DNA from: Novosphingobium sp. KA1 | GTDB taxonomy: Bacteria > Pseudomonadota > Alphaproteobacteria > Sphingomonadales > Sphingomonadaceae | Direction of reading: 5' to 3' | Assembly (NCBI RefSeq): GCF_017309955.1 | Contig: NZ_CP021248.1 | Coordinates: 1,054,001-1,118,000 of the forward strand | Length of the DNA stretch: 64,000 nt | In this document: positions 36,425 through 55,494 of the stretch, one piece after another | Layout of the letters: every line of letters begins with the position of its first letter | Position numbering within the stretch: the first letter of the stretch is position 1 | Notes under the pieces: generated by a model | The model's input: only the letters and a program-made list of their open reading frames with translations | Database searches by the model: none | What the model was told of the DNA's origin: nothing | Program-made: the position numbers and the translations under genes

Positions 36425-38389
36425 TCAGGTGCCGGGCGCGGGCTTGCGGTATGTCTTGCCGTCGATGGTGGTGACAAGATCGCCGTCCAGCGGCTCGCCC
36501 AGCGGGCTGATGACAAAACCGCCGGGCTCGGTGGTCTTTTTGGTGCCGGTCTGGGCCCCGCTCGCCCGCAGGTCCGAGTGCCAGACGATCCGGGCGCGCC
36601 CGTCCTTCATGACAAGTTCCGCGCTTTCGGTGCCGTCGATCACGTGGGCGCCGTCGTCGGTGAAGCCGGCGTAGCGGGCCGACACGAAGGAAATGCGGCC
36701 GCTCGCGGTCTTGCGGATCTCCACTTCGGCCTTGCCGCCCTTCCACCCGTCCATCGTGAAGCGCCCGGCCGGGGCGGAGGGATAGCGCCGGGGCATCGGA
36801 TCGCCGGCGCGGTAGGGGGTTCCCCAGGGCACCGCAATGGCCCCCGGCGCCACCTTGCGGGCAAGAGGCAGGGCGGTCCGATCGGGCAGGCGCGCGATCA
36901 TCAGCCGGGTCCGCCGCCCGCCCGGTTCGCGGGAGGCCGGGCAGGGCAGCGGATTGGCGCCGCCGCAATCGGGCGAGATCACTTGCGCCTGCCAATAGAC
37001 GACGTTTGTCCCGTCGGGCGACCAGGCCGGATCGGCGCGGGCATTCCAGTCGGGATCGCTGGCGCTGCCGGGCGCGCCGTTTCCGGCATTGAGCTGCTGC
37101 CCGCGATAGGTGCCCCGGTCGCCCCAGCGGTCGATCAGGATCGGCTGGAAGAACCGGCGCATGCCGTTGCGATAGCCATAGCGCGCGCTGAGCATGACCA
37201 TTCGCGTCAGTTCGTCGGTCAGCGGCGGGATGCCCTGCATGGCGCCGTAGTACATGTGGCGCTCGACGGTGCGGTTGTCGAAGACCACGAGCCACTTGTC
37301 GTCGGGTGACATCAGGATCGGATCGGCATAGCCGGGTGCCGATGTCAGCCGGTGCGAATGGCCGGATTGCAGGTCGGTTATGAACATGTCGACGTTGCCG
37401 GATTCGGGAATGCCCATGCCGACCGCATTGCGGCCGTCGCGGGTCCAGCCCCGGGCTTCGCCGATCGCGCCCTTGACCGGGTTGTGGATCAGCACGCCGG
37501 GTCTTTTCGGATCTTCGCGAAAGGCGGCAAACTCAGGGGAGCGGCCATTGGTCAGCACCTGGACGTCGCCGAGTTCGTAGCGCGGGGCCAGCGGCAGCCC
37601 GCGTCGCGGCGCGGGGTTGAAGCGCAGCGTGCCGACCAGCCCGTGCTGGTCGATGTCGGGCCCCGTCGCGATCATGTGGCTCCACATCAGATGGCGGCCA
37701 TCGGGATTGAGCCGCAGCTCGCGCATCGAGCCCCCCGGCCCGGAGCCGTCCGCGCTGGTGTTCCAGCGGATCGGATAGATGCGGATGCGATCGGGCGTGC
37801 AGCGCTCGTCGGCAAGCCCGTATGGCCCGCAATCGACGACGTTGGTTCCCGCGATCATCCTGGTGCCGCCCGGGAAAGGCTGGGGATGATCGAGGCTCAG
37901 CCAGGGCGATCCCGCCGGCACGGTGCGTCCATGCTCGTTGCTGCCGGCCGGGTTGGCATCGCGGCGCGCCTCTGCCGGAACCCCGCAGGTGATGCATTTC
38001 CAGCCATCGCCGTTCGAAAAGACCGTGCCGTCGGTCCGGATCGCGATGACCTGCGGCCCGTCGTGGGTCGGATCCCCGGCGGGAGCGCCCGCGAACTGGA
38101 CGGTGAGCAGCACGTGCCGCCCATCACCCATGTAGGCAGGGCCTTCGACAATCCCGTCGTCGGCGGCGGACATGCAGCCGGTCCCGCGCGGGGCGACCGC
38201 CTTCGAACAGGCGCCCGCCGTTTCGGACGGCGCGGTGGGGGGCAGGGGGAGCGCGGAGACCTCCACCCGTTCGGGTTTCGGGGGGGCTGGCACCGCCGTG
38301 CCTGCTGCCGGCGCGGAAAATGCGCCAAGCGGCGCGAGCGCGGTGCCAAGACTGGCCAGAACGAGGGGGATGCGTGCGGATCGGGACAT
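36425..38389 (-). CDS. Saponin-hydrolase-like secreted beta-propeller
   Basis: This 654-residue protein has a signal peptide (about 1-26) and a TolB/PD40-like propeller. Several phrases match fungal saponin hydrolase (soyasaponin beta-glucuronidase) as I remember it: DGWKCITCGVP, the DCGPYG segment, RIYPIRWNTSADGSG and RELRLNPDG. That enzyme removes the sugar chain from soyasaponin by cutting the glucuronide-aglycone bond. I rate the homology likely but it was recognised from memory. It follows an SDR gene by 109 bp and shares its operator-bearing promoter. Periplasmic action on a glycoside brought in by the TonB receptor would make sense. Confidence 0.7.
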   Translation of the reverse strand: MSRSARIPLVLASLGTALAPLGAFSAPAAGTAVPAPPKPERVEVSALPLPPTAPSETAGACSKAVAPRGTGCMSAADDGIVEGPAYMGDGRHVLLTVQFAGAPAGDPTHDGPQVIAIRTDGTVFSNGDGWKCITCGVPAEARRDANPAGSNEHGRTVPAGSPWLSLDHPQPFPGGTRMIAGTNVVDCGPYGLADERCTPDRIRIYPIRWNTSADGSGPGGSMRELRLNPDGRHLMWSHMIATGPDIDQHGLVGTLRFNPAPRRGLPLAPRYELGDVQVLTNGRSPEFAAFREDPKRPGVLIHNPVKGAIGEARGWTRDGRNAVGMGIPESGNVDMFITDLQSGHSHRLTSAPGYADPILMSPDDKWLVVFDNRTVERHMYYGAMQGIPPLTDELTRMVMLSARYGYRNGMRRFFQPILIDRWGDRGTYRGQQLNAGNGAPGSASDPDWNARADPAWSPDGTNVVYWQAQVISPDCGGANPLPCPASREPGGRRTRLMIARLPDRTALPLARKVAPGAIAVPWGTPYRAGDPMPRRYPSAPAGRFTMDGWKGGKAEVEIRKTASGRISFVSARYAGFTDDGAHVIDGTESAELVMKDGRARIVWHSDLRASGAQTGTKKTTEPGGFVISPLGEPLDGDLVTTIDGKTYRKPAPGT

Positions 38390-38498
38390 GACGGTTCTTC
38401 TCGAAAGCGGTCCATCCGGCGGCGCGGCGACGGACGGGTGAGGGGGAGGGGGGCTGGCGGGCCGGGCGCGCCGCGCAGATCGCGGCGGCCTGCCATCC

Positions 38499-39251
38499 TT
38501 ATCCGATGAACATGCCGCCATTGACGGCCAGGACCTGGCCGGTGACGTAGCTGGCGCCGTCCGAGGCGAGATATTCGCAGGCTGCCGCGATGTCGTCCGG
38601 GGTGCCGGGACGCGGGATCGGGATGTGCTGGGAGATGATTTCCAGCGGCGGGAAGGTCCCGGCCGCGATCCCGGCTTCGGCCATGGGCGTCGCCACCACC
38701 GAGGGGGGGATGGTGTTCACGGTGATGCCGCTGGCGGCAAATTCGCGGGCCAGCGAGCGGGTCAGGCCGATCACCCCGGCCTTGGCGGCGGCATAGTGGG
38801 CGCGGTCTGCGGCGCCGGACTGGCCTGCCTGCGACGAGATGGTGATGATGCGTCCCCAGCTTGCCGCGACCATGTCCGGCAGGGCGGCCTGCACCGTGTT
38901 GAACACGCCGGTCAGGTTGATGTCGATCATGCGCTGCCAGGTCTGCGCGGTGACGTCGAGGAAGCCGATGCCCTCGGAAATCCCGGCATTGGCGACCACG
39001 ATCGCGATCGGGCCGAGCTCTTCGCGGATGGCGGCATAAGCTGCCTCCACGCTGGCGCGGTCGGCGACGTCGACCTTGCGGGCAAGGATGCGCGCTCCTT
39101 GCGCCCGCAGCGCCGCGCTTTCGCGTTCCAGCGCTTCGTCCTGAACGTCGAGCATGGCGACCGGATGGCCCTTGGCGGCAAACAGCCGCGACACGCCGAG
39201 CCCGATGCCCGATGCCCCGCCGGTGACGACGACGACACGATTGGCAACCAT
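38499..39251 (-). CDS. SDR-family oxidoreductase 1
   Basis: This 250-residue classical short-chain dehydrogenase has TGGASGIG (residues 10-17), NAG near 88-90 and the catalytic Ser139/140, Tyr153 and Lys157 (YAAAK). The start ATG 39251 follows GGGAGAAGAT. It would oxidise or reduce a hydroxyl or keto group, for example on a sapogenin or freed sugar. A copy of the shared palindrome lies 78 bp upstream, and the saponin-hydrolase-like gene follows downstream. A second SDR is divergent. Confidence 0.9.
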   Translation of the reverse strand: MVANRVVVVTGGASGIGLGVSRLFAAKGHPVAMLDVQDEALERESAALRAQGARILARKVDVADRASVEAAYAAIREELGPIAIVVANAGISEGIGFLDVTAQTWQRMIDINLTGVFNTVQAALPDMVAASWGRIITISSQAGQSGAADRAHYAAAKAGVIGLTRSLAREFAASGITVNTIPPSVVATPMAEAGIAAGTFPPLEIISQHIPIPRPGTPDDIAAACEYLASDGASYVTGQVLAVNGGMFIG

Positions 39252-39329
39252 ATCTTCTCTCCCGTTGGGCGCTCGGCAGGATGGGGCCGGCGCCTTTTCA
39301 TGTGTGGCGTCCTGTCCGGTTACGCCTGT

Positions 39330-39352
39330 TTGTGCGATAATGTGGCGCACAA
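39330..39352. promoter_or_regulatory. Regulon operator site A
   Basis: TTGTGCG-N9-CGCACAA is a perfect 7-bp inverted repeat whose 17-bp core is TGCGATAATGTGGCGCA. It lies between two divergent SDR genes. GATAAT inside it could be the -10 box for the rightward SDR. It is one of five related sites in the window. Confidence 0.78.
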
Positions 39353-39459
39353 CTTGCCAGCTGTCCAGCCTCGATATAGGCAATCCGGCGAGGGGATCCG
39401 GCGCCGCGATTCGACGTTGCGGGCAATGCCGGGGCCCGAAAACAACAGGAGAAATGGGG

Positions 39460-40272
39460 ATGCCAGTGCCAGACGTTTCGGATCGCTCGCTCGATCAGCT
39501 GACCTCGCTGAAGGGCCGGGGCGCGGTTGTCACCGGGGCGGCGTGGGGGCTGGGCAAGGCCGCGGCGCGGCGGCTTGCCGAAGCCGGCGCGTCGGTGCTG
39601 ATCGCCGATATCGATGAAGAGGCCGCCGCCGCAACTGCCCGCGAACTGGCCGGACGGTTCGGCGTCGATGTCGTCTCGATCCGCCTCGACGCGGGTGATC
39701 CAGCGTCGATCGTGGCGGCTGCCGACCTTGCCGAGAGCCGCTTCGGCACGCTCGACATCTGGGTCAACAATGCCGGTATCCCGTCGTTTCAGCCGCTGCT
39801 CGACCTCGACGTCGAGGAGTTCGATAACGTCCTGGCGATCAATCTGCGCGGCACCTTTGTCGGCGCCAGGGAAGCGGCGCGGCGGATGATCGCGCGGGGG
39901 CGCGGCGGGGTGATCGTCAACGTCGCCTCGCTGGCCGGCGTGCGCGGTATTTCCGAAGGGCAGGCTGCCTATTGCAGTTCGAAGCACGGCGTTGTCGGCC
40001 TGACCAGGCAACTGGCGATCGAACTGGGCGGGCACGGCATCCGCGTGCTGGGGGTGGCTCCGGGTTTCTCGCTGACCGAGAAGACCATGTTCATCGCCGA
40101 ATGGGACGAGGAAACGATCAGGAACTGCCCGATCCCCGGCATCGGCGGCAGCCGCCTCGGACGGGTCGGCGTGGCCGACGACATTGCCCGGGCGATCCTG
40201 TTCTGCGCCTCGGACATGGCCATGTTCATGACCGGCAGCACTTTGCTGCTCGAAGGCGGAATGGCGGCCTGA
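39460..40272 (+). CDS. SDR-family oxidoreductase 2
   Basis: This 270-residue short-chain dehydrogenase has TGAAWGLG at 25-32, NNAG at 103-106 and the catalytic Ser157, Tyr171 and Lys175 (YCSSK). The N-terminus is about 20 residues longer than usual. Two ATGs six bases apart exist; 39460 lies eight bases after AGGAG and is preferred over 39454. It is divergent from the first SDR across operator A, so both are probably induced together. Its substrate is unknown, but the neighbourhood suggests a sugar or sapogenin alcohol. Confidence 0.9.
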   Translation: MPVPDVSDRSLDQLTSLKGRGAVVTGAAWGLGKAAARRLAEAGASVLIADIDEEAAAATARELAGRFGVDVVSIRLDAGDPASIVAAADLAESRFGTLDIWVNNAGIPSFQPLLDLDVEEFDNVLAINLRGTFVGAREAARRMIARGRGGVIVNVASLAGVRGISEGQAAYCSSKHGVVGLTRQLAIELGGHGIRVLGVAPGFSLTEKTMFIAEWDEETIRNCPIPGIGGSRLGRVGVADDIARAILFCASDMAMFMTGSTLLLEGGMAA

Positions 40273-40277
40273 CGGTT

Positions 40278-41188: not shown

Positions 41189-42745
41189 TCAGGCGATCTC
41201 GACCAGGGCGAGCCCTTCGGCGGGCAGGTCGAGCGTGAGCGAGGCGTCGGCGCCGAGGCGGCGTGTTTCCACCACCGGCCGCGAGACCTGCCGCAACTGC
41301 GCGATCTGCGCGCGCGAGGGGTACCGGGGCGAGCCCATCGCCCACCAGGCCGGCATCGGCGAGCCGCGCTCCCAATCGACATAGTGCACCTGCGCGGTCC
41401 GTCCGCCCTTCAGCCCGTCGAACTGCACGGTCACGCGCCTGGCTCCGCCGACGATCTTGCGTTCGGAGGTCATGCCGGGAATGCCGCCGGGCTGATCGAC
41501 TTCGGCGAGATTCCACACGAGTGCGGAGATCCGCCCCCGCTTGTCCTTCGCGGCCAGCGCCGGGCCCTGCGCGGCGAGCCGCTCGGTGCCGAGCCGGTGC
41601 AGCAGCCGGTAGGTATTGAACGAAGGTTTGGCGATGCCGTCGATCATCATGCTCCAGCCCATCGAGCCTTCCTTCAGCATGTAGTCGTCGACGCCCAGTT
41701 CCTCGTACATGCCGCTCAGCGTCCATTGCGACATGCCCGCGCAGTGCGCCATGCCGCCGGCGATGACGTGGGCGATCATCGCCGGGCTGTCGGACGACCA
41801 TTCGGACAGCCACATCGGCTTGCCGGCGAACGTGCCGGCATCGATAGTGCGCCGGGCATCGGCAAGCGCGTCGGGGATGACGGCATTGACGCTGCGGCGC
41901 GGGCTGCCCTTGCCGAAGACCTCGTCCTGGTTGTCACCGGCGTAGACATGGGTGGCGAAGAAGTCGACGGGGGCGTTGTTGGCCGCGCACCATTCGGCAA
42001 AATCGCCGATCCATGCCGTTTTCGAGGTGGCGGGGCCGCCGACCTTGATCTGCGGGTCGACCGACTTGATGGCGACCGCGACGGCCTTGTACATGTCGAA
42101 ATAGCGCTGCTTGTCGGCGGTCCAGAAGAACGAGAGGTTGGGTTCGTTCCACACCTCGAAGGGCCAGCTGCGCACGGCATCCAGCCCGTAGCGATCGACC
42201 ATCGCGGTGGTGAAAGACCGGATGAATCCGGCAAATTCGGCGTCCGAGGTCGGCGGCGTGATATTGCCGCCGTAGAAGCCGAACTGGGTTTTCCCGGAGG
42301 CGAGCTTGCCGGGCATGAAGCTCAGTTCCACATAGGGCGACACGCCAAGGTCGAGCAGGCCGTCGTAGACGCGGTAGACGTTCAGCCAGTTCGGGCCACC
42401 GTTGCGGCGCATCTCGAGGATGCTCTTGCCGAACACCCCCAGTTCGTCGTTGAAGATGCCGTGGAAGCGTGCGCGCTTGATGCCCGCCTCCGCCACGGCG
42501 AGCCGCATGTCCTGCCGCCATTCCTCGCGCATGGTGATCGCCGCACGGTCCGATCCGACACATTCCTCCCAGACATGGGGCAGGGCGCCCGCAACCGTGC
42601 GGGTATCGACCCGCACCGTTTCGCCAGCGAGGGCGGCGCCCCCGCGGGCGGCCCCACTGGCGGCCCCAATGGCGGCCCGAGCCCCGCTGGCCGACAAGGC
42701 CGCGGCGGCGGCGCCTGATGCCAGAAACATGCGTCGATCCAACAT
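41189..42745 (-). CDS. GH39-family glycosidase, Tat-exported
   Basis: This 518-residue glycoside hydrolase starts with a Tat-like signal (DRRMFLASG, residues 3-11). The (beta/alpha)8 barrel carries EVWNEPN with acid/base Glu201 and WLSEWSS with nucleophile Glu315, as in GH39 beta-xylosidases and iduronidases. A C-terminal beta-sandwich covers about 410-518. The start ATG 42745 follows GGAGA at good spacing. The segment between the signal and the domain is Ala/Gly-rich with repeated GGCGGCCCC-like DNA. It probably removes xylose or a related sugar from a glycoside in the periplasm. GH106 and GH2 precede it in the same operon. Confidence 0.85.
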   Translation of the reverse strand: MLDRRMFLASGAAAAALSASGARAAIGAASGAARGGAALAGETVRVDTRTVAGALPHVWEECVGSDRAAITMREEWRQDMRLAVAEAGIKRARFHGIFNDELGVFGKSILEMRRNGGPNWLNVYRVYDGLLDLGVSPYVELSFMPGKLASGKTQFGFYGGNITPPTSDAEFAGFIRSFTTAMVDRYGLDAVRSWPFEVWNEPNLSFFWTADKQRYFDMYKAVAVAIKSVDPQIKVGGPATSKTAWIGDFAEWCAANNAPVDFFATHVYAGDNQDEVFGKGSPRRSVNAVIPDALADARRTIDAGTFAGKPMWLSEWSSDSPAMIAHVIAGGMAHCAGMSQWTLSGMYEELGVDDYMLKEGSMGWSMMIDGIAKPSFNTYRLLHRLGTERLAAQGPALAAKDKRGRISALVWNLAEVDQPGGIPGMTSERKIVGGARRVTVQFDGLKGGRTAQVHYVDWERGSPMPAWWAMGSPRYPSRAQIAQLRQVSRPVVETRRLGADASLTLDLPAEGLALVEIA

Positions 42746-42780: not shown

Positions 42781-45525
42781 TCAATGCGCGATCTCGATTC
42801 CGGCCAGCGCGACGTTGCCCGACACGCTGGTGAAATCGAGCTTGAGGCGGCCGTTGCGGACAGTGACCGGGAAGCTGCGGAGCAGTTCCTTGAGCGGCGC
42901 CCCGGCCGCCCTGCCAATGTTGAGACCCTGGATGACCGCCTCTCCGTTCGCGGTGACGGTGAGGGCCTGGTCGGACGAGGCGGTCTTGCGCGGTTCGAAG
43001 AGGTGCAGTGTCACCGTCCAGCTGCCGTTCGGCAGGGGAATGTCGTAGCTGAAGGCATCCCCGTCGCGCCAGTAGTCGAACAATGCCGGGTCGGCTGCAT
43101 CGACCGTGCGGATCGGCGCCATCGAGCGCCCGCCGAAACCGACAAGGTTGAGCACGGCCGGCTTGCCGCCCGTCACGAACGTGTCCGAACCGAAGTGGCG
43201 GCTGCCGTGATGCCCGCCCTGATGCCCGCCGGCCAGTTCAAGACCGGGCAGTTCAAGACCGGCTGGGCTACCCGCATTGATGCGCAGTCCGCCGCGCTCC
43301 ACGTCGGGCCCGTTCCAGGTGGCGCGGTCGGTCAGGGTCTTGCCGCCCTGCGTGGTCGTCACCACGGCGGCATTGGCGCCGGGCCGCAGCGCCACGTCTT
43401 TCCATTCGCAGACAAAGTCCCGGCAGGGCACTTCGCCGACCGGCCTGCCGTTGATCGTCAGTCGCGCGGACGGGGCGGTGGCATAAGCCTTGACGTCCAT
43501 CACCGGATAGGCGCGGTCCAGATCGCGCGTTCCGGCAAAGTGCAGGGCAGGGCTGTCGCTCCAGGCCACCTTGTAGAACCAGAAGGCATCCTTGCGGGTC
43601 TTGCGGTCCGCCGTGATCAGCCCCTTGTCGTTGAGGTCGACCGCGTCGCCTTCATCACGCAGGTCGCTGGCAAAGTCGAACATCGCCCAGACCCAGCTGG
43701 CAAACACGAAATCGCGGGCGGCGATGCTCGGCCAGGACTGCTCGTGGACCCATGCCTGGTACTCTTCGGGATGGGGACGGCCGACAAAATTGACATAACC
43801 GCTGCGCACGTCGTCGCTGTGCTGGCTGATCGCGCCGCCCGCGCCGTATTCGCTGAGCGAGAGCGGCAGCCCCGGATGCTCGCGGTGGAGCTTGTCGAGC
43901 GTGTCGCCAAGGTCCTGGCGGACCTCCAGGGGCTTGGGATAATACCAGCCGTAGTAGCGGTTGTAGCCGATCAGGTCGGTGGTTCCGGCCAGCGTCTCTC
44001 CGGCGGTCTGGACCAGCGTCAGCCCTTCGCAGCAATCGGCAAAAGTGGTCGGGCGATCGGGGTCTTCCTGCCGGGCGATGGCATTGAGGTGCGCGAGCAG
44101 GGCCTGCGGCTGCGGCGGCGCGCCTTTCTGGCCGAAACCCTTGGCCGAATCCACTTCGTTGCCGACCGACCACATCAGGATCGCGGGGTGGTTGTAGTTC
44201 TGCCGGATCTGCTCGCGCAATTGCTGCTCGGCATTGGCCCAGAGCGCATCCGAGCCCTTGCCGCCGGTAATGCTGGGGGTGGTGACGTAAGGCAGCTCGG
44301 CCCAGACCACCATGCCGGCCTTGTCGGCGAGATCGGACCAGGCATCGGCGTGCTGGTAATGGGCCTGGCGGATGGTGTTGGCCCCGAGTTCCTCGACCAG
44401 CGCCATGTCCTGCGCGTGCTGCGCGGGCGTCAGTGCCCAGCCCGAGCCGAGCGCGTCCTGATGGCGCGAGACACCGCGCAGCTTCACATGCCGCCCGTTC
44501 AGGAAAAAGCCCTTGTCGGCATCGAAGCGGAAGGTGCGAAGGCCCAGCGGCTGCGACACCCGGTCCAGCACGGCCTTGCCGTCCGAAAGGGTGGCGGTGA
44601 CCGAATAGAGGTAGGGATCGGCCCGTCCGTCCCAGCGATGGGGACGGGCCAGGTCGAGCGCCGTGCGCTGCTCGCCGGTTCCGCTCGCCAGGGTGACCGG
44701 CTGGACGGTGCGGGCGACGACCTTGCCGCGCGCGTCGCGGATCTCGGTCGCGAGGGTGAGGCTGCGCGGCGCCGGGCCGGCATTGCGCAAGCGGGTGCGC
44801 ACCTCGACTGTCGCGCTTTCGGCGGAAATCCTCGTCGCATGCGCGTAGACGCCCGGTCCGCCGTAATCGAGCGGATCGATGGACGCGGCGGGAAGCTGGA
44901 GCAGTGCAACCTCGCGGTAAATGCCTCCATGCACGAAGAAATCGCCGGAGAGCGGAATGACTTCGGAGGTGGAGCTGCCGGGCTCCACCTTGCTGTTGTC
45001 GGCGCTGACCACGACCAGATTGCGCTGGCCCGGCTTCCAGGCATCGGTAACGTCGAGGCGGAAGCGGGCGAAAGCGCCCTTGTGGGTGCCGACATGGTGG
45101 CCGTTTACCCAGACTTCGGCCAGTTTGCCGACCGCTGCAAAGTCCAGATACTGGCGGTCGCCCGGCTTCGCCTTTGGCGCATCGACCTGCAGGCGGTACC
45201 AGCCCAGGCCCTGCCGGTTGTCGGTCTCGGCGCCGCGCTTCTGGGCATAGGCACCGATGCGGTTCCAGCTGTGCGGGACCGAGACCTGCTCCCAGTCCCG
45301 ATCGTCGAAGCCGGTGGCGGTGACCGCCGCCGGAGCATCGCCGAAGTGGAAGCGCCAGCCATGCGACAGGTCGATTGCCGCTCGCCCGGTTCCTGGCTGC
45401 CTGGCTGCCTGCGTGCCTGCCTGCGACGCAGTGCGGTCCGCCGCCACGGCCGCGGGGGATATGGCTGTGGCGGCGATTGCCGAACCCAGCATCAGGCCTG
45501 TCAGTATCCGCTTGAAATCGCCCAC
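42781..45525 (-). CDS. GH2 beta-galactosidase-like enzyme with malectin-like tail
   Basis: This 914-residue enzyme has a signal peptide (about 1-29) and the GH2 sugar-binding domain (50-210). An immunoglobulin-like domain (about 215-335) and a TIM barrel follow, with acid/base Glu457 in SVGNEVD and nucleophile Glu559 in LSEYGAGG. A DUF4982-type domain and a malectin-like carbohydrate-binding domain (about 790-914) end the protein. The linker before the tail has short in-frame duplications (LELPGLELAGG, HQGGHHG). It starts at GTG 45525 with AGGGAGAG upstream. Galactosidase activity on a saponin or glycan chain is the likely role, though GH2 also includes glucuronidases and mannosidases. Confidence 0.87.
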   Translation of the reverse strand: MGDFKRILTGLMLGSAIAATAISPAAVAADRTASQAGTQAARQPGTGRAAIDLSHGWRFHFGDAPAAVTATGFDDRDWEQVSVPHSWNRIGAYAQKRGAETDNRQGLGWYRLQVDAPKAKPGDRQYLDFAAVGKLAEVWVNGHHVGTHKGAFARFRLDVTDAWKPGQRNLVVVSADNSKVEPGSSTSEVIPLSGDFFVHGGIYREVALLQLPAASIDPLDYGGPGVYAHATRISAESATVEVRTRLRNAGPAPRSLTLATEIRDARGKVVARTVQPVTLASGTGEQRTALDLARPHRWDGRADPYLYSVTATLSDGKAVLDRVSQPLGLRTFRFDADKGFFLNGRHVKLRGVSRHQDALGSGWALTPAQHAQDMALVEELGANTIRQAHYQHADAWSDLADKAGMVVWAELPYVTTPSITGGKGSDALWANAEQQLREQIRQNYNHPAILMWSVGNEVDSAKGFGQKGAPPQPQALLAHLNAIARQEDPDRPTTFADCCEGLTLVQTAGETLAGTTDLIGYNRYYGWYYPKPLEVRQDLGDTLDKLHREHPGLPLSLSEYGAGGAISQHSDDVRSGYVNFVGRPHPEEYQAWVHEQSWPSIAARDFVFASWVWAMFDFASDLRDEGDAVDLNDKGLITADRKTRKDAFWFYKVAWSDSPALHFAGTRDLDRAYPVMDVKAYATAPSARLTINGRPVGEVPCRDFVCEWKDVALRPGANAAVVTTTQGGKTLTDRATWNGPDVERGGLRINAGSPAGLELPGLELAGGHQGGHHGSRHFGSDTFVTGGKPAVLNLVGFGGRSMAPIRTVDAADPALFDYWRDGDAFSYDIPLPNGSWTVTLHLFEPRKTASSDQALTVTANGEAVIQGLNIGRAAGAPLKELLRSFPVTVRNGRLKLDFTSVSGNVALAGIEIAH
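43212..43266. repeat. Short tandem duplications in GH2 linker
   Basis: Two adjacent imperfect tandem repeats are seen on the + strand: TGATGCCCGCC twice (43209-43230 region), then AGTTCAAGACCGG twice (about 43235-43263). They keep the reading frame and only lengthen the linker before the malectin-like tail. Confidence 0.6.
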
Positions 45526-48500: not shown

Positions 48501-48975
48501 TCCACACCAGCTTTTTCATGCCGTCGGCGGGCGTCACCCAGGGGCCGCCGGTCTCGGACCAGCCCGGCGATGAGGCAATCGCCAATTCGATGCCAAGGCG
48601 ATCCGCCTCGCGCGCTGCGGCCTTGAAGGCAGACCGCCAGGCGGGCGTCATGTAGACCAGTCGCTGGTCGACGATTTGCGGGCTCTGGAGATTGACGTCG
48701 AATGCCTGCGCGCCGCCGATGCCGATCCGCTTCATCCAGGCGAGGTCCTTGCGCAGCCCGTCCACGGTGATGTTGCCGTTGATCCAGTGCCACCAGACCC
48801 GCGGACGCGCCTCCATCGGCGGGTCGCTGAACTGTCCTGCAAGCGGGTCAGCCTGATCGGGCGCGGCCGGGGACCCTGACTGGGCGGAGACCGGCCCCGA
48901 AACAGCGGCAACCGATAGCGACAGCGCCAGCCTGATCAGCGCCGACCTTCTCCGAAATTGCCCGTTCTTCGCCAT
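45556..48975 (-). CDS. GH106 alpha-L-rhamnosidase
   Basis: This 1139-residue enzyme has a signal peptide (about 1-31, ending SAQ). Its N-terminus PRVWWHWINGNIT is characteristic of GH106, whose founding member is a Sphingomonas paucimobilis rhamnosidase of similar size. The central barrel includes LTDSIEVGAANWTP. A galactose-binding-like C-terminal domain carries VRVNGQLAGYGWHQPYRIDI. It removes alpha-linked L-rhamnose from glycosides such as saponins, flavonoids or pectin. Its promoter carries operator B with a consensus -35. The start at 48975 fits the signal peptide but has a poor ribosome site; an ATG 9 bp upstream is the alternative. Confidence 0.9.
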   Translation of the reverse strand: MAKNGQFRRRSALIRLALSLSVAAVSGPVSAQSGSPAAPDQADPLAGQFSDPPMEARPRVWWHWINGNITVDGLRKDLAWMKRIGIGGAQAFDVNLQSPQIVDQRLVYMTPAWRSAFKAAAREADRLGIELAIASSPGWSETGGPWVTPADGMKKLVWSEVTVSGGKRLTRPLPMPPSVTGPYQSIAATSGTNSTINEKAPDVPAPFYRDAVVVAVPAEPALADGAAATFTSGEGQPVDAAALTDGDLETGADLPKVARQPTLLTARYPAARTIRALTLFVPGGAGKFIGANLKASLEAQTAAGQWTTVTDIPLGRVPTTRSFAPVTARAFRIVFQDASSLPNFAPPPAGVDLSALAAGFSGGKPAASIRVAEFALSAEERVNRAEAKAGFDIVPDYYALDAGLANSAGVAPDRIIDLTPRLHADGTLDWTPPPGRWRIIRFGYSLVGTMNHPAPLEATGLEVDKYDGEAVRRYMDHYLATYRQTVGADLIGAQGVRAILTDSIEVGAANWTPRMVAQFKRLRGYDPVPWMAALTGTIVGSRQDSERFLHDFRRTLADLLASEHYGTVARAAHDNGLVVYGEALEDHRPQLGDDMAMRRWTDVPMAAMWAFQRDRGPKPTYLADMKGAASVAHLYGQRTVAAESLTSMLAPWAFAPADLKRMIDLAFASGINRPVIHTSVHVPVDDRKPGLRLSIFGQDFNRNEAWGELARPWMDYVARNSLMLQQGVNRADLAYFYGEEAPLTGLFGDKPVSEVPAGTAFDFVNADALIDALANDGGDLVTAGGARYRALYLGGTAGRMSLRVLARIADLVEAGATVIGAPPVGDPGLGADPARYRSLVQKLWPGAAVNPVGRGRVIATGDLAAGLAQAGIAPDFTFSGGAPGAVLPFVHRKLADGDSYFISNQSNRAETITAHFRVAGKEAELWHAETGRSEPVSFTAAQGVTSVPLTLGPDEAVHVVFRKDSAATSRTVAPVELREAAVLGGAWDVTFEPGRGAPPQVRLAQLAPLGANADPAIRYFSGIATYTKSFTAPRGWKKGMPLLLDLGEAREIAEVRVNGQLAGYGWHQPYRIDIGAQARPGRNRLTIRVANLWVNRLIGDAQPGAAKVTWTATATYRKDAPLRPSGLLGPVRLLEQRRD

Positions 48976-49054: not shown

Positions 49055-49099
49055 TTGTGCGACACACTGTCGCCTATTGTTGCCGATATGCGCTGTCAA
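49055..49099 (-). promoter_or_regulatory. GH106 promoter with regulon operator site B
   Basis: On the minus strand, TTGACA (49094-49099), 17 bp and TAGGCG (49071-49076) form a promoter whose -10 runs into operator B (49055-49077, core TGCGACACACTGTCGCC). GCGACA-CAC-TGTCGC is a perfect inverted repeat. A repressor bound here would block polymerase. Confidence 0.75.
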
Positions 49100-49350: not shown

Positions 49351-49396
49351 TTGACGTTATCCGCCCTCCCACGGTATGCGACACTGTATCGCATAA
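49351..49396 (+). promoter_or_regulatory. Ferredoxin-P450 promoter with regulon operator site C
   Basis: TTGACG (49351-49356), 18 bp and TATGCG (49375-49380) form a promoter whose -10 lies inside operator C (49374-49396, core TGCGACACTGTATCGCA). TATGCGA and TCGCATA at its edges pair perfectly. The layout copies that of site B. The ferredoxin ATG is 68 bp downstream. Confidence 0.78.
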
Positions 49397-49463: not shown

Positions 49464-49781
49464 ATGGCATCGATTACCGTAATAGGCGTGTCCGGCGAGG
49501 AAAGGCTGCTCGAGGCCAGGACCGGACAGACGGTCATGGAAGTGATCCGCGACGCGGGCTTTGACGAGTTGCTGGCGCTGTGCGGCGGCTGCTGCTCGTG
49601 CGCGACCTGCCACGTGCACGTCGAAGGCGGTCCGGCCGAGGCACTGGCGGCGATGAGCGAGGACGAGAACGACCTTCTCGATTCGTCGAGCCAGCGTGGC
49701 GGCCAATCGCGCCTTTCATGCCAGCTGCCGATCACCGACGCGCTTGACGGACTGCGCGTGCGGATCGCGCCCGAAGACTGA
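49464..49781 (+). CDS. [2Fe-2S] ferredoxin for P450
   Basis: This 105-residue adrenodoxin/putidaredoxin-type ferredoxin has cluster cysteines in C-X5-C-X2-C (ALCGGCCSCATC, residues about 40-48) and the fourth in LSCQLP near 85. It would pass electrons to the P450 encoded 56 bp downstream. No ferredoxin reductase is present nearby, so that partner must be elsewhere. The ribosome site is GAGGGCGAG. Operator C lies upstream. Confidence 0.93.
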   Translation: MASITVIGVSGEERLLEARTGQTVMEVIRDAGFDELLALCGGCCSCATCHVHVEGGPAEALAAMSEDENDLLDSSSQRGGQSRLSCQLPITDALDGLRVRIAPED

Positions 49782-49836: not shown

Positions 49837-51441
49837 ATGACGGAACTGGCCGATCGGGACTATTTCACCGACCACGAGATCCTTGTCGATCCTTATGCCT
49901 ATTTCGAGGCGGTACGGAGCAAGGGCCAGGTCTACCAGCCCCAGGGCAAGGATTATCTGATGGTCATGGGTTTCGAGGAAACCCTCGAGATCATGCGCAA
50001 TTCGGAAGACTTCTCGGCGATTATCGGCCTGCAGGGCGCTTCCGCCCCGCTGCCGTTCACGCCGCAAGGATCCGACATCACCGCCCAGATCGAGGCGCAC
50101 CGCGACGCGTTTCACGGCGGCGACCTGCTGGTCAATCTCGATGACAATCCGCACCTGCAGCTGCGATCGCTTGTCAACCGCCTGTTCACGCCCTCGCGCC
50201 TCAAGGCCAACGAGGAGTTCATCCAGGCCTTCTCGGACGAACTGGTGCGGGACGCGGTGGCCAATGGCGGCGTGGAATTGGTCAAGACGATCGCGACGCC
50301 GTTCGTCACGTTGGTCATCGCCGATCTCCTCGGTATTCCCGCCGAGGATCGCCAGAAGTTCATGGACATCATCGAGAACGCGCCGCCTCCCGGCAACCTC
50401 GACGGCGAACTCGACCTCAATGCCGAAGACCACCCGTTCGTGATCATGGGCGGCTACTTCGCGCAATATGTGGCCGATCGCCGCGCCAATCCGCGCGAGG
50501 ACATCCTCTCCGAGCTGTCCAACGCGCTCTATCCCGACGGCACGCTTCCTGACGAGATGGCGATCATCAAGCTGGGCATGTTCATGTTCGGGGCGGGGCA
50601 GGACACCAGCGCCAAGCTGCTGGGCAACGCGATGCGCTACATCGTCGATCAGCCGGGGCTGCAGGACCGGCTGCGCGCCGATCCCAAGCTCATTCCGGCA
50701 CTGATCGAGGAAGTCCTGCGCCTCGAAGGTTCGACCAAGCAGACCGCCCGCCTGGCGCGGCGCGATACCAGGATCGGCGATCTGGCGGTTCCGGCCGGTA
50801 CGAAGATCATGCTCTCGATCGCCGCTGCGAACCGCGATCCGGCGCGCTGGGAAGACCCGCAGGCGTTCAGGCTCGACCGTCCGAAGATTCGCGAACACGT
50901 CGCGTTCGGCCGCAGCGCGCACACCTGCGCGGGCGCGCCGCTCGCCCGCGTGGAAGTGCGCATCATTCTGGAAAAGCTGCTGCAATACACGTCCGACATC
51001 GATCTCGATCCTGCGGTGCATGGCCCGCGCGGTGCCCGCAAGCTCAACTTCGAGCCGAGCTTCATCATCCGCGGCCTTTCGGAACTGCACCTCAAGCTTA
51101 CCCCGGCCGAAGGCGCTGACCTTTCGTCGACACGCCCCTCGGTGATCCAGAAGACCGCGGAAGCCGCAGTGCCGGTCGCGCCTGAGACACCGGCATCCGC
51201 ATCGGCGCCGGTCGCGACGTCCGGATACTCGACCGGCGTGACCAAGCTTGCCGTGCTCCTTGCCGATCCCGGCGCCAAGGCCGTGCTTGAACAGCACTTC
51301 CCCGGCATCACCACCGACAAGCGCATCGGCATGGCCAAGTCGATGACGCTGCGTGCGATCCAGAAGTTCGCGCCGGGCCAGTTCACCAACGAAACGCTCG
51401 AAGCCGTCGACCGCGACCTCGCCGTTCTGCCGGCGGCCTGA
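49837..51441 (+). CDS. Cytochrome P450 with extra C-terminal domain
   Basis: This 534-residue protein has a bacterial class I P450 core in residues 1-425: I-helix GAGQDT (252-257), ExxR (Glu292-Arg295) and heme-ligand Cys364 in FGRSAHTCAG. The core is complete. An Ala/Pro-rich linker (427-467) and a domain of about 65 residues (468-534) follow, absent from ordinary P450s. That domain is about 40 percent identical by hand count to the secreted protein at 55688-56008. It probably hydroxylates a hydrophobic aglycone using the upstream ferredoxin. The extra domain may bind substrate or a partner. Confidence 0.92.
   Translation: MTELADRDYFTDHEILVDPYAYFEAVRSKGQVYQPQGKDYLMVMGFEETLEIMRNSEDFSAIIGLQGASAPLPFTPQGSDITAQIEAHRDAFHGGDLLVNLDDNPHLQLRSLVNRLFTPSRLKANEEFIQAFSDELVRDAVANGGVELVKTIATPFVTLVIADLLGIPAEDRQKFMDIIENAPPPGNLDGELDLNAEDHPFVIMGGYFAQYVADRRANPREDILSELSNALYPDGTLPDEMAIIKLGMFMFGAGQDTSAKLLGNAMRYIVDQPGLQDRLRADPKLIPALIEEVLRLEGSTKQTARLARRDTRIGDLAVPAGTKIMLSIAAANRDPARWEDPQAFRLDRPKIREHVAFGRSAHTCAGAPLARVEVRIILEKLLQYTSDIDLDPAVHGPRGARKLNFEPSFIIRGLSELHLKLTPAEGADLSSTRPSVIQKTAEAAVPVAPETPASASAPVATSGYSTGVTKLAVLLADPGAKAVLEQHFPGITTDKRIGMAKSMTLRAIQKFAPGQFTNETLEAVDRDLAVLPAA
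51238..51438 (+). other. C-terminal P450 extension domain
   Basis: This segment encodes residues 468-534 of the P450, with the pattern LL-x2-P-x2-KA-x-L and IGMAKSMTLRAIQKF. Residues 474-533 align without gaps to residues 45-104 of the small secreted protein, with about 24 of 60 identical. I do not recognise it as a named domain. Confidence 0.75.
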
Positions 51442-51564: not shown

Positions 51565-51587
51565 CGATGCGACACAGTGGCGCACAA
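51565..51587 (+). promoter_or_regulatory. Regulon operator site D before TonB receptor
   Basis: The core TGCGACACAGTGGCGCA (51568-51584) lies 39 bp upstream of the TonB receptor ATG. TTGACC at 51560-51565 with CACAAA 17 bp later would put the operator in the promoter spacer. The flank GCACAAAATTCG matches the flank of site C (GCATAAAATTCG). Confidence 0.75.
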
Positions 51588-51623
51588 AATTCGACAAGAA
51601 AAATCATATCGGGAGAGGATTCG

Positions 51624-54140
51624 ATGCGTAGACAAGACGCGTTCATACTTGCTGGCGTGAGTGCGCTGGCCATGGCCAGTCCCGCGCGGGCGCAGGAGGC
51701 GGAAAGCACCACCGCCGCCGTGGGCGTCCATTCCGGCGCCACCAGCGATGCTTCGGTTGTGACCGAGATCATCGTCCAGGCGCGCCGCCGCGACGAAAGC
51801 CTTCAGGATGTGCCGCTGGTCGTGAACGCGGTGACGGCGGATTCGATCACCAAGCTGAACATCCGCAACTTCACCGAGATCAACGCCGTGGTGCCGGGTC
51901 TCCAGCTCACGCCCAACGCGAACGGCATCGGCACCTCGTCCTCGATCCGCGGCGTCAACCACGACGTCAACGTCAGCGCCGAAAACGGCACGATCCAGTA
52001 CTATCGCAACGACGCGCCGGTTCCCTCGAACTTCGTCATGCAGACGATGTATGACGTTGGCCAGATCGAAGTGCTGCGCGGTCCGCAGGGCACCTTGCGC
52101 GGGCGCTCGACGCCGTCGGGTTCGATCACGGTGACCACGCGCCAGCCGGATCTGGTGGAAGCGGGCGGCTACATGGCCGGCACGCTGGCCTCGGCTTCGG
52201 CCGCCAACATCAACGGCGCGCTCAACATTCCGATCATTTCCGATGTGCTTGGCATCCGCGTGGCCGGCCTCCACAGCTTCGATCGCGGCAATCGCGTCAC
52301 CAGCGTCAACAGCGACGTGAAGCCGAGCAGCGAGACCAACGCCATCCGTGCCGCGGTTCGTTTCGAACCGACGCAGTGGCTGCGTCTCGGCTTCCTCTAC
52401 GAAGGCATGCAGAACACCGGCACGCGGTTCGACCAGGTGCGTTCCGTCAGCCAGTACGATCCCGACTATGTGCCCTCCGCGGGCGCGCCGGATTACGGCG
52501 AGATCGGCCTGAGCGACCGCCTCTCGGTGCAATCGCGCCCGAGCACGACCTCGCAGAAGTTCCAGTTCTACAACTGGAATGCCGAAGTCGATGTCCTCGG
52601 CCAGCGCCTGATCTACGTGGGTTCGGCGACTTCGCAGAAGTACCATAGCTACGGCGTGCGCGACCTCGCGAACTTCTTCCCGGATCTCGCCGTCGCGCAG
52701 ATCGCGGACACCAAGGGCACGACCAGCAGCCATGAAGTGCGTCTGCAGAACCTCGACCGGGTTGCCGGGCTGTTCGACTACGTCGCCGGGTACTTCCACT
52801 ATGCGGTGCCGTCGCAGACCAACCTCGACGACCTCAGCATAACCCAGTTGCGCCTTGCCGGACTCGGCTTCCCGATCGCCGCACCGAGCGTGACGGACAC
52901 CCCGATCTACGTTGCCAAGGGTACGCCGACGGAAGATTCCTTCTTCGGCAACGTGACCTTCCACCTCACCGAAGCGACGGAACTGTCGGGCGGATTGCGG
53001 CGTATCCACTTTACCGACAACCGCGATGGCCTGTTCATCAGCTGTACGCCCGAAATGTACGCGGCGGGCAACTGCACGCGCCAGAACGGCACCCAGTCGG
53101 ACGTCAACGAGAACGCCACGATCTACAGCGCCAGCATCAAGCATCGCTTCACGCCGGACCTCATGGTCTACGCCTCCACGGGGAGTTCCTGGCGTCCCCC
53201 GGTCGTGGCGATCGGCAATTTCACCCATGCGGACTACACCGCGAACGAGATCGCCCATATCTCGTTGCCTTCGGAAAGTTCGAAGTCCTACGAGATCGGC
53301 TTGAAGTCCGATTGGTTTGACCGCAAGGTGCAGTTCAACCTGACCGCGTACCATCAGGACTACAAGAACTACCCCTACCGCTCCGGCGGGGCAGGGATCG
53401 CCTATATCAACATCAACTCGGCCGGCGCGCCGACGATCGGCAACTTCAACTTCGTCAGCGCGGTGCCGATCAAGGTCAACGGCGTCGAGGCCGAACTCGC
53501 CTTCACGCCGACGCCGCGCTGGAATCTCGGGGCAACGGTCAACTTCGCACGCAGCCGTATCGGCAACGCGCTGCTGGCTTGCACCGACGCGCTGAACAAC
53601 CAGAGCGGCGCGGTCGGCTCCGACGGCATTCCCGATACGGTCACGCCGACGCTGGCGCAGATGCAGCAGGCCTATGGCGGCGAGCGCGTGGCGCAATGCG
53701 CGGGCGGCGGACAGTCGGCGACCTTCCAGCCGGAATGGTCGGGCGTGTTCAGGGCCGAATACACGCTTCCCCTGAACAACGATGTCGATGGTTACCTGCG
53801 CGGGCTGTTCAGCTGGAAGGGCAAGTCCCGGACCGACCCGAACAATCCCTATGACAACGTCAAGGCCTATGGATTGCTGAACCTGTTCGGCGGCCTCAGG
53901 GCCCAGGATGGCGGATGGGAAGTCTCGGTCTACGCGAAGAACATCTTCGATACGACCAAGCTGCTGAGCCAGGACGATCTCGCGCAGTTCACCTCGGTGA
54001 CCGACGTCTATCTCAGCCCGCCGACCTACAGCGTCTCGGGCATCGGATCGACGGTCTACAGCAGCCGCTATGCCGGTGTGGCGGTGACCGCACCGCGTGA
54101 ATTCGGCGTGACGTTCCGCGTTGCGTTCGGCTCGCGCTAA
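51624..54140 (+). CDS. TonB-dependent receptor of the P450 regulon
   Basis: This 838-residue outer-membrane receptor has a signal peptide (about 1-23). A TonB-box/plug start follows (VTEIIVQARRRDESLQDVPL) with plug motifs IEVLRGPQGTLRGRSTPSGSI, then a barrel ending in RVAFGSR. It is of the sphingomonad type used for plant and aromatic compounds as well as siderophores. Its promoter carries operator D, so it is probably induced with the glycosidases and the P450. That would suit uptake of an amphipathic glycoside. ATG 51624 follows GGGAGAGGA. Confidence 0.92.
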   Translation: MRRQDAFILAGVSALAMASPARAQEAESTTAAVGVHSGATSDASVVTEIIVQARRRDESLQDVPLVVNAVTADSITKLNIRNFTEINAVVPGLQLTPNANGIGTSSSIRGVNHDVNVSAENGTIQYYRNDAPVPSNFVMQTMYDVGQIEVLRGPQGTLRGRSTPSGSITVTTRQPDLVEAGGYMAGTLASASAANINGALNIPIISDVLGIRVAGLHSFDRGNRVTSVNSDVKPSSETNAIRAAVRFEPTQWLRLGFLYEGMQNTGTRFDQVRSVSQYDPDYVPSAGAPDYGEIGLSDRLSVQSRPSTTSQKFQFYNWNAEVDVLGQRLIYVGSATSQKYHSYGVRDLANFFPDLAVAQIADTKGTTSSHEVRLQNLDRVAGLFDYVAGYFHYAVPSQTNLDDLSITQLRLAGLGFPIAAPSVTDTPIYVAKGTPTEDSFFGNVTFHLTEATELSGGLRRIHFTDNRDGLFISCTPEMYAAGNCTRQNGTQSDVNENATIYSASIKHRFTPDLMVYASTGSSWRPPVVAIGNFTHADYTANEIAHISLPSESSKSYEIGLKSDWFDRKVQFNLTAYHQDYKNYPYRSGGAGIAYININSAGAPTIGNFNFVSAVPIKVNGVEAELAFTPTPRWNLGATVNFARSRIGNALLACTDALNNQSGAVGSDGIPDTVTPTLAQMQQAYGGERVAQCAGGGQSATFQPEWSGVFRAEYTLPLNNDVDGYLRGLFSWKGKSRTDPNNPYDNVKAYGLLNLFGGLRAQDGGWEVSVYAKNIFDTTKLLSQDDLAQFTSVTDVYLSPPTYSVSGIGSTVYSSRYAGVAVTAPREFGVTFRVAFGSR

Positions 54141-54176
54141 GGTTCCTGCGAAAGGGAGGGCCAAGGGGCGTCCCTG

Positions 54177-54887
54177 ATGATGACGAAGCAAGACGATGGC
54201 GCTGTCGCCAGACGGGAACGGGCCCGCCCGAAGAAAGGGCAGGGCCCCGACCTGCACCGTCTGGAACGCAGCGCCCTCGCGGCCTTTTCACGGCGGGGGT
54301 TCGCGGCCGTGGGGCTTCGCGAACTGGCAGCCTCGATCGGTATCGCGCCGACCCTGATCCTCTATCGCTACGGTTCGAAACTCGGCCTGTGGAAGGCGCT
54401 CGTGGATGAGCTTGGCCTGCGGGTCGATCAGGCCTGCGCGGCGATGGACAGCGCGTTCGCGGCGGCGCAGCCGTTTCCGGACAGGGCCAGCGCCGCGCTT
54501 CGCCCCTTCGTGCGGCTCACTATCGAGATTCCGGAACTGGCGCCGCTGTTCATCGGTGAAATGTCGGAGCCGGGAGAGCGACAGGACTACCTTCTCGACA
54601 AAGTCTGGAGCCCGTTTCTCGTCTCGCTGCTGCCGATCATCCACGACGCCGAGCGTTTCGGCAATTCCGATCTCGGCGTCCCGAAATTTGCCGCATTTTC
54701 GATCCTCAGCATGATCTTTGCGGCGCAGTACATGGCGCCGGTGATCGGTCTGGCAGCGGACGCGCCGCAGCATGACCCGCTCGCCCGGGTCCTGAGGCCG
54801 ATCGAGCGCCTGCTGACGCTCGATCTCGCACAGGATCGCGCCTGCGATCTTTCAACCGGGCGCAGTCCCCTCAATCCGGCGCCATGA
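54177..54887 (+). CDS. TetR-family regulator 1
   Basis: This 236-residue TetR/AcrR-type regulator has its helix-turn-helix in residues 28-75 (LRELAASIGIAPTLILYRYGSKLGLW) and a divergent ligand domain. A basic, flexible stretch of about 25 residues precedes the domain. It follows the TonB receptor by 36 bp on the same strand and may be co-transcribed with it. It overlaps the convergent second TetR gene by 17 bp. It could respond to the imported ligand, but no operator can be assigned to it rather than to regulator 2. Confidence 0.87.
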   Translation: MMTKQDDGAVARRERARPKKGQGPDLHRLERSALAAFSRRGFAAVGLRELAASIGIAPTLILYRYGSKLGLWKALVDELGLRVDQACAAMDSAFAAAQPFPDRASAALRPFVRLTIEIPELAPLFIGEMSEPGERQDYLLDKVWSPFLVSLLPIIHDAERFGNSDLGVPKFAAFSILSMIFAAQYMAPVIGLAADAPQHDPLARVLRPIERLLTLDLAQDRACDLSTGRSPLNPAP

Positions 54888-55494
54888 TCGAGGTGGACAG
54901 CAGCCGGTAAAGGATGCGCGCGATTTGCGAGACGCTGTAGGTGTCTTCCGGCTGGCCGACCCACCAGGCCAGTGTCTCCGCGATCAGCGAGGCGGCGCAG
55001 ATCGTTCCCAGTTCGGTGGGCAGCCAGGCGTTGATCGGCTGTTCGCCCTTGGCCACTTCCATCGAGACCCGCAGCCATTCCTCCCGCATGGCGCCGCCGG
55101 CGCCGCCGTTGAGCAGGATCGCCCAGAGTTCGCGGTGTTCTGCCACATAGGCGCAGAGGCCCTCGAAACCGGCTTCGTAGCTTTCGGCATCGCGGATCGA
55201 CAGCGTCAACTGGTTGAGGCGGGCGATCTCGTCCTTGGCAATGGCGTCGAGCAGCGATTCCTTCGTTTCGTGGTGACGGAAGAAGGTGGCGTAATGGACC
55301 TTTGCCTCGGCGCAGATATCGCGCACGGTGATCTGGTCGAAGGGCTTGCGCTGGAGGAGTTGCAGCATGGCTTCCTGCAGCGCCTTGCCCGATCGCAAGG
55401 CGCGGGCATGGGTCGATCTTGATGATGCCAGTGGCTCGGATTTATGCGATACGGTATCGCCTAAAGCTCGATTCGGTTTTTTGTTTTCGGCCAT
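54871..55494 (-). CDS. TetR-family regulator 2, likely regulon repressor
   Basis: This protein of up to 207 residues has a TetR helix-turn-helix at about 45-90 (FDQITVRDICAEAKVHYATFFRHHETKESL) and a C-terminal ligand domain of about 110 residues. A copy of the regulon palindrome (site E) lies at its 5' end, so it probably represses itself and the other four targets. With ATG 55494 the operator would be inside codons 11-17 and no ribosome site is visible. A downstream start such as TTG 55398 would place the operator about 45 bp upstream, as for the other genes. Confidence 0.85.
   Translation of the reverse strand: MAENKKPNRALGDTVSHKSEPLASSRSTHARALRSGKALQEAMLQLLQRKPFDQITVRDICAEAKVHYATFFRHHETKESLLDAIAKDEIARLNQLTLSIRDAESYEAGFEGLCAYVAEHRELWAILLNGGAGGAMREEWLRVSMEVAKGEQPINAWLPTELGTICAASLIAETLAWWVGQPEDTYSVSQIARILYRLLSTSIMAPD
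55442..55464 (-). promoter_or_regulatory. Regulon operator site E at tetR2
   Basis: GCGATAC-G-GTATCGC (55446-55460) is a perfect 15-bp palindrome, extended by TTTA and TAAA on its outsides. It is the most symmetrical of the five sites. On the minus strand it begins TAGGCG, as in the GH106 promoter. It lies at the 5' end of tetR2. Confidence 0.78.

What the first reader, a model, noticed from the sequence alone, without database searches (positions are those of the whole stretch)
36425..55494. Candidate saponin (soyasaponin-like) catabolic regulon
The co-regulated genes are a saponin-hydrolase-like protein, GH106 rhamnosidase, GH2 galactosidase-like enzyme, GH39, two SDRs, a ferredoxin-P450 system and a TonB receptor. 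Soyasaponin I carries Rha-Gal-GlcA on a triterpene, so rhamnosidase, galactosidase and glucuronide-cleaving saponin hydrolase would strip it in order. P450 and SDRs would then attack the aglycone. I recall reports that soyasaponins enrich Novosphingobium in soil. A bacterial pathway of this composition under one TetR would be new to me, though parts may have been described.
Basis: partly seen in the sequence, partly recalled or inferred. Interest (0 to 1): 0.92.

Follow-up and report, generated by a model that had tools for sequence, protein, structure and literature searches.

The report
Bacterial plant-saponin breakdown gene set
A soil bacterium related to Novosphingobium carries a gene set, apparently under one switch, that looks built to take in a plant saponin, cut off its sugars and start oxidising the core; it is a concrete, testable candidate for how such bacteria feed on saponins from plant roots, but the exact saponin is not known.

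Summary
Window 36425-56008 carries a saponin-hydrolase-family protein (SapH), two SDRs, GH106, GH2, GH39, a GntR/FCD regulator, ferredoxin, P450, TonB receptor, two TetR genes and a small secreted protein. A 17-bp palindrome occurs five times among them; 5 of the 11 closest sites genome-wide lie here. SapH is 43-46% identical over about 600 residues to 13 fungal proteins, 9 of them named saponin hydrolase, and is modelled as a TolB-like beta-propeller. The P450's nearest solved structure is CYP150A6. Sphingomonas sp. LaA6.9 keeps SapH, SDR, ferredoxin, P450, receptor, TetR, small protein and palindromes without these GHs nearby, so that looks like the core. SapH also lies near related P450s in actinobacteria and near GH106, GH39, GH79 or GH1 in others. 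Best reading: a TetR-controlled catabolic regulon for a glucuronic-acid-bearing triterpenoid saponin. SapH was found in 2 of 397 family genomes. My paper searches listed no such cluster. Side finding: a small helical domain without Pfam match occurs twice in this genome, both here: secreted alone, and fused to the P450.

The parts
36425..38389 (-). SapH: TolB-like beta-propeller protein of the saponin hydrolase family (654 aa), leader peptide by eye
38499..39251 (-). SDRa: short-chain dehydrogenase, upstream of SapH on the same strand
   Evidence: translation; 62-82% relatives near SapH or the P450 in L027, L071, L072, L077
39333..39349 (.). operator 1 (TGCGATAATGTGGCGCA) between SDRa and SDRb
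39454..40272 (+). SDRb: short-chain dehydrogenase
   Evidence: 54% relative near SapH in Actinomadura fibrosa L029, 76% in L077
40318..41130 (-). GntR/FCD regulator, best NCBIfam match ExuR (146 bits, cut-off 396)
41189..42745 (-). GH39 glycosidase (twin-arginine-like leader by eye); nearest solved structures beta-xylosidases
42781..45525 (-). GH2 enzyme with malectin-like C-terminus; NxK motif present; best NCBIfam match beta-glucuronidase LacZ4 (559 bits, cut-off 950)
45556..48975 (-). GH106 alpha-L-rhamnosidase, nearest solved structure 6q2f
49058..49074 (.). operator 2 (TGCGACACACTGTCGCC), about 83 bp before the GH106 start
49377..49393 (.). operator 3 (TGCGACACTGTATCGCA), about 71 bp before the ferredoxin start
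   Evidence: matching sites L027:7633, L076:17026
49464..49781 (+). [2Fe-2S] ferredoxin
49837..51441 (+). CYP150A6-like P450 with an extra C-terminal domain (about residues 425-534)
51568..51584 (.). operator 4 (TGCGACACAGTGGCGCA), about 40 bp before the receptor start
   Evidence: matching sites L027:4838, L076:19821
51624..54140 (+). TonB-dependent receptor
   Evidence: 50% relative in L027
54177..54887 (+). TetR-family regulator 1, downstream of the receptor
54871..55494 (-). TetR-family regulator 2, the likely repressor; its operator lies in its first codons
   Evidence: relatives with a site at the same place in L076, L071, L073
55445..55461 (.). operator 5 (TGCGATACGGTATCGCC)
   Evidence: matching sites L027:8444, L076:16215
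55694..56008 (+). small protein with leader peptide by eye; same domain as the P450 C-terminus (37% over 70 residues)

Best explanation
A TetR-controlled catabolic regulon for a plant triterpenoid saponin that carries glucuronic acid. Inferred working: the TonB receptor brings the saponin (or its trimmed form) across the outer membrane; exported SapH cuts the glycosidic bond at the aglycone and releases the sugar chain; GH106, GH2 and GH39 (also exported) trim rhamnose, a hexuronic acid or galactose, and xylose or a similar sugar from saponin or freed chain; the ferredoxin-fed, CYP150-like P450 and the two SDRs hydroxylate and oxidise the freed sapogenin in the cell; TetR2 represses all units at the shared palindrome until a pathway compound binds it. 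Shown: gene content, family membership, shared palindromes, their conservation in a relative, conserved neighbourhood. Inferred: substrate, order of steps, inducer, place of each enzyme, and that TetR2 is the protein that binds.
For: SapH family contains UniRef 'Saponin hydrolase' entries from fungi and actinobacteria and 'saponin hydrolase precursor [Colletotrichum truncatum]'; the 13 fungal rows aligned (9 so named, 3 named TolB-like or TolB family, 1 hypothetical) are 43-46% identical to the window protein. Palindromes: and at matching places in LaA6.9. SapH-SDRa-small protein-TetR2-Fd-P450-receptor together in L027, with no match to the window's GHs in its 22 kb. P450 relatives (E <= 1e-55): I gave 22 of the 32 loci as handles, 21 genomes were held; 64 matches in about 186.5 Mb; 8 fall inside 7 of the 21 SapH loci against about 0.15 expected if spread evenly (arithmetic mine; the genomes are related, so this is not a strict probability). 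GH106 and GH1 near SapH in N. chloroacetimidivorans, two GH39 and a GH79 in an Acidobacteriaceae MAG, GH1 in another MAG. CYP150A5 hydroxylates the terpenoid beta-ionone (PMC6237146, passages). An ExuR-like regulator ends the GH operon and UxaC is encoded elsewhere in the genome, which fits glucuronate release. Oleanane-type saponins enrich Novosphingobium (PMC8538258, passages).
Against: No activity or induction data. The window SapH and the fungal ones lie on opposite sides of the deepest split of a midpoint-rooted tree, so activity may differ; most family names are propagated annotation. The P450 with SDRa and/or TetR2 occurs without SapH in 3 of the 5 sampled family genomes whose P450 is 60% or more identical (G325, G168, G031), so the module serves more than one substrate. 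In N. chloroacetimidivorans the best P450 module lies on another contig than SapH, and that genome has no more palindrome sites at up to 2 mismatches than the reversed-pattern control; a 3-mismatch site stands 76 bp before its SapH (L050:9904). 24 of 32 SapH loci show no such P450 within the flank held. The ExuR and LacZ4 matches are far below their cut-offs.
Confidence: 0.65

Rival explanations
1. One reading: the regulon is specifically for soyasaponin I/Bb, with sequential removal of rhamnose (GH106), galactose (GH2) and glucuronic acid (SapH), then P450/SDR attack on soyasapogenol B.
For: SapH family includes fungal proteins named saponin hydrolase (that the founder acts on soyasaponin I is recalled); soyasaponins enrich Novosphingobium (PMC8538258 and PMC10653915, passages).
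Against: GH2 leans to beta-hexuronidase; GH39 has no place on soyasaponin I; quillaja-, gypsophila- or tea-type saponins (GlcA with Gal, Xyl, Ara or Rha; recalled) fit the enzyme set as well or better.
Confidence: 0.2
2. A steroidal saponin or glycoalkaloid catabolon like that of Sphingobium sp. RC1 (tomatine, dioscin).
For: RC1 uses GH39 and GH106 enzymes on tomatine and dioscin (PMC10653915, section 4 part 1, section 13, passages).
Against: RC1 also relies on GH3 enzymes and GH78, and no SapH is named in the parts read; among the window genes scanned with Pfam there is no GH3 or GH78, and the genome has no match over the cut-off of the GH78 model PF17389; the GH2 NxK motif and ExuR-like regulator lean to uronic acid.
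Confidence: 0.12
3. A flavonoid-rhamnoside regulon, since the nearest GH106 structure is 6q2f (RHA-P, recalled).
For: GH106 aligns end to end with 6q2f, 1353.8 bits; a Novosphingobium PP1Y GH106 acts on flavonoid glycosides (cited in PMC10653915, passage).
Against: SapH, CYP150-like P450 and SDRs have no role there, and the cluster in LaA6.9 lacks the GH106.
Confidence: 0.06
4. SapH is not a glycosidase but another propeller enzyme (for example a lactonase or lyase) acting on a terpenoid or other plant compound, and the sugar enzymes are a separate unit captured by the same repressor.
For: Propeller fold shared with many activities; actinobacterial SapH loci hold P450s, SDRs (mycofactocin-coupled in L044 and L045, the two tested) and ALDHs, with no match to the window's GHs; P450 module also without SapH.
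Against: The family name goes back to a characterised fungal enzyme (recalled); GH106, GH39, GH79 and GH1 neighbours in other lineages.
Confidence: 0.17

Closest known systems
Saponin-degrading genes of Sphingobium sp. RC1 (PMC10653915)
   Same: Sphingomonad; exported GH39 and GH106 with sapogenin-oxidising genes; saponin as substrate class
   Different: [quoted passage not shown] here a beta-propeller SapH, GH2, CYP150-like P450 and a palindrome set
Fungal saponin hydrolase (Neocosmospora vasinfecta sdn1 and relatives; PMC8120277, passages)
   Same: Same protein family over full length as fungal proteins of that name; the sdn1 sequence itself was not compared
   Different: The fungal rows nest among actinobacterial ones; the sphingomonad group is in the other clade; no characterised bacterial member appeared in the papers searched (8 listed, 4 opened for passages)
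RHA-P, GH106 rhamnosidase of Novosphingobium sp. PP1Y (6q2f)
   Same: Aligned over residues 44-1166
   Different: Here in a row with GH2, GH39 and a GntR regulator behind the shared palindrome
CYP150 P450s of mycobacteria (CYP150A6, 6dcd; CYP150A5)
   Same: Aligned over 419 residues, 381.7 bits, next chain 176
   Different: [2Fe-2S]-type ferredoxin beside it and an extra C-terminal domain; substrate unknown

Membership tests
Saponin hydrolase family (fungal type) | Homology over the whole chain to proteins named saponin hydrolase | tested here: met
   43-46% identity over 588-621 aligned residues to 13 fungal rows, 9 of them so named
Saponin hydrolase family (fungal type) | Hydrolysis of a glucuronide saponin such as soyasaponin I | not testable with these tools
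   needs assay; founder's activity recalled, its paper (PMC348887) is not held
GH106 | Pfam Glyco_hydro_106 over its cut-off | tested here: met
   1001 bits against cut-off 29
GH2 beta-hexuronidase | NxK motif in loop 8 | tested here: met
   NDK aligned with NDK of 3cmg (3cmg is titled putative beta-galactosidase, recalled as a glucuronidase); marker as in PMC12243196 section 23 part 1
GH2 beta-hexuronidase | Tyr of loop 6 | tested here: inconclusive
   NRYYGWY aligned with NRYDGWY of 3cmg; which Tyr is meant was not checked on a structure
GH2 beta-hexuronidase | Arg upstream of NxK in loop 8 | tested here: inconclusive
   position N-4 is Ala where 3cmg has Arg; an Arg stands at N-9 in both; no structure compared
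NCBIfam beta-glucuronidase LacZ4 | Score over curated cut-off 950 | tested here: not met
   559.2 bits, best of 12 families
GH39 | Pfam Glyco_hydro_39 over its cut-off | tested here: met
   274 bits against 26
CYP150 P450 family | Same family by about 40% identity to a named CYP150 (rule recalled) | tested here: inconclusive
   381.7 bits over 419 residues to CYP150A6; identity not printed
Sphingobium RC1-type steroidal saponin cluster | GH3 set with GH39/GH78/GH106 | tested here: inconclusive
   GH39 and GH106 present; no GH3 or GH78 among window genes scanned with Pfam; genes at 1-24773 were not scanned, only first residues read; no GH78-model match over cut-off in the genome; GH3 not searched genome-wide

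The most novel reading that the evidence does not exclude
This is the missing catabolic system for glucuronic-acid-bearing oleanane saponins in Novosphingobium: a beta-propeller hydrolase frees the sapogenin, a CYP150-like P450 and two SDRs open it, all under one TetR, and a new small helical domain, made both as a secreted protein and as a P450 fusion, acts as carrier or handover factor for the poorly soluble sapogenin.
Probability: 0.22. Interest if true: 0.85.

Novelty: new variant of a known kind. Interest (0 to 1): 0.62.

Why it matters
Soyasaponins and other oleanane saponins enrich Novosphingobium in soil (PMC8538258, passages), yet the six Sphingobium RC1 enzymes gave no product from soyasaponin Bb or glycyrrhizin, and PMC10653915 (passages) says the microbial pathway for sapogenin degradation had not been uncovered. 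This locus gives named genes, a palindrome to test and a candidate deglycosylating enzyme family with bacterial and fungal members, so the question becomes directly testable.
Full report
WHAT IS THERE. The window lies in a 5.78-Mb genome of three contigs (G000:C2:1054001-1118000). Its SapH is 99-100% identical to one in 'Sphingomonas sp. IC081' and 96-97% to one in Novosphingobium clariflavum. The layout is: SDRa-SapH leftward; SDRb rightward; GH106-GH2-GH39-GntR leftward; ferredoxin-P450 rightward; TonB receptor-TetR1 rightward; TetR2 leftward; a small protein with a leader rightward. To the right begins a cellulose-synthase set, to the left lie urea carboxylase/allophanate hydrolase genes and others.

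SHARED CONTROL. A 17-bp palindrome stands before the GH106 row, the ferredoxin-P450 pair and the receptor, between the two SDRs, and in the first codons of TetR2 (5 found at up to 3 mismatches, 1.35 expected, 0 of 100 shuffles as many; at up to 2 mismatches 5 found, none in 40 first-order resamples, one strand). Genome-wide, 5 of the 11 distinct sites at up to 1 mismatch of a looser pattern are these. One more site in G215 (L076:1097) lies far from the cluster. In two further genomes a site lies at the tetR start beside the P450 (L071, 1 mismatch; L073, 2); L072, L074 and L075 have none at up to 2.

NEIGHBOURHOOD ELSEWHERE. A scan of genome contigs with two peptide patterns gave 32 loci (35 of 64 pattern matches confirmed); such a scan is not exhaustive. 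LaA6.9 has SapH, SDRa, the small protein, TetR2, ferredoxin, P450 and receptor in one block, and no match to GH106, GH2 or GH39 in its 22 kb. P450s at 35% or more over 300 residues stand in 8 of the 32 loci (in L024 and L025, near-copies of the window, the flank ends before the P450, and several loci are cut by contig ends). As a control, P450 relatives at E <= 1e-55 were counted in the genomes of 22 of the 32 loci; 21 were held: 64 matches in about 186.5 Mb, of which 8 lie in 7 of the 21 loci, against about 0.15 expected (sums mine, genome sizes rounded, genomes not independent). Loci of Mycolicibacterium and Nocardia also hold SDRs (mycofactocin-coupled in L044 and L045, the ones tested) and aldehyde dehydrogenases. 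Other sugar enzymes near SapH: GH106 and GH1 in N. chloroacetimidivorans, two GH39 and one GH79 in an Acidobacteriaceae MAG, GH1 in another MAG. I called genes in 15 of the 32 loci (L034 printed none in range), so these are not full counts. In the protein searches three SapH relatives and three small-protein relatives have contigs of the same lengths (31508, 65272, 2150198), which suggests linkage there too.

AGAINST A SIMPLE STORY. The P450 with SDRa and/or TetR2 occurs without SapH in G325, G168 and G031, 3 of the 5 sampled family genomes with a P450 at 60% or more. In N. chloroacetimidivorans the closest P450 (75%), SDRa (82%), SDRb (76%) and TetR2 (49%) are together on another contig than SapH, and that genome has 3 palindrome sites at 2 mismatches, equal to the reversed-pattern control; a 3-mismatch site 76 bp before its SapH (L050:9904) may or may not count. 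The P450/SDR module is thus wider than its tie to SapH; SapH and the GHs look like additions that let it feed on glycosides.

SUGAR ENZYMES. GH106 aligns end to end with 6q2f. GH39 is nearest to beta-xylosidases; a GH39 of Sphingobium RC1 is reported to remove xylose and glucose from tomatine (PMC10653915, section 13). GH2 scores best with a beta-glucuronidase family but below its cut-off; it has the NxK motif that marks beta-hexuronidases in PMC12243196, with Ala at N-4 where 3cmg has Arg. The GH row ends with a regulator nearest ExuR, below the cut-off, and UxaC, with a neighbour that I read as a mannonate or altronate oxidoreductase, exists on C1. Together this leans to a uronic-acid-bearing sugar chain.

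P450 AND SMALL DOMAIN. The nearest solved P450 is CYP150A6. CYP150A5 makes 4-hydroxy-beta-ionone (PMC6237146, passages); CYP150 genes have also been tied to pyrene breakdown (PMC10301208, passages), so the family does not by itself name a terpenoid. The P450 carries about 110 extra residues whose end is 37% identical over 70 residues to the small protein. In this genome the domain was found only in these two places (E <= 0.01). It has no consistent Pfam match, a moderate-confidence helical model (pLDDT 75.3) and no significant fold match. The fusion recurs in G325 and in N. chloroacetimidivorans; LaA6.9 has a P450 without it and the separate small protein. A ligand carrier is a guess.

VERDICT. 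Gene set and shared palindromes confirmed; a saponin-type substrate is supported by family and context; soyasaponin as such is open. Literature seen: PMC10653915 (abstract, section 4 part 1, section 13, passages), PMC8538258 (abstract, passages), PMC12243196 (section 23 part 1, passages), PMC6237146, PMC10301208, PMC8896106, PMC7530916, PMC8120277, PMC8502126, PMC13039779 (passages). The N. vasinfecta enzyme paper was not held; its substrate and its way of releasing the chain are recalled.

Noticed in passing
window 51109-51441 (+) and 55694-56008 (+): A small helical domain without Pfam match, found only twice in the genome: alone with a leader peptide, and fused to a P450, both in this regulon.
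   Followed up: partly
P0157-P0219 (13 fungal rows) and P0175 (rotifer Rotaria) in alignment A2: Fungal members of the saponin hydrolase family, with one rotifer sequence, nest inside a clade holding the actinobacterial ones, which suggests transfer from bacteria (midpoint root).
   Followed up: partly
window 55636-55661: Perfect 12-bp inverted repeat with 2-bp spacer between the TetR2 start and the small protein gene.
   Followed up: no
L050:3-842: Rieske-type oxygenase part near SapH in N. chloroacetimidivorans, best NCBIfam match 4beta-methylsterol monooxygenase SdmA, far below its cut-off; of interest because oleananes carry a 4,4-dimethyl group.
   Followed up: no
G000:C1:1851476-1852711: A second, 53% identical P450 in the same genome; no match to the other regulon genes and no palindrome in the 20 kb taken.
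   Followed up: partly
window 24774-30136 and 56096-63986: Urea carboxylase and allophanate hydrolase genes to the left; cellulose synthase genes to the right.
   Followed up: no
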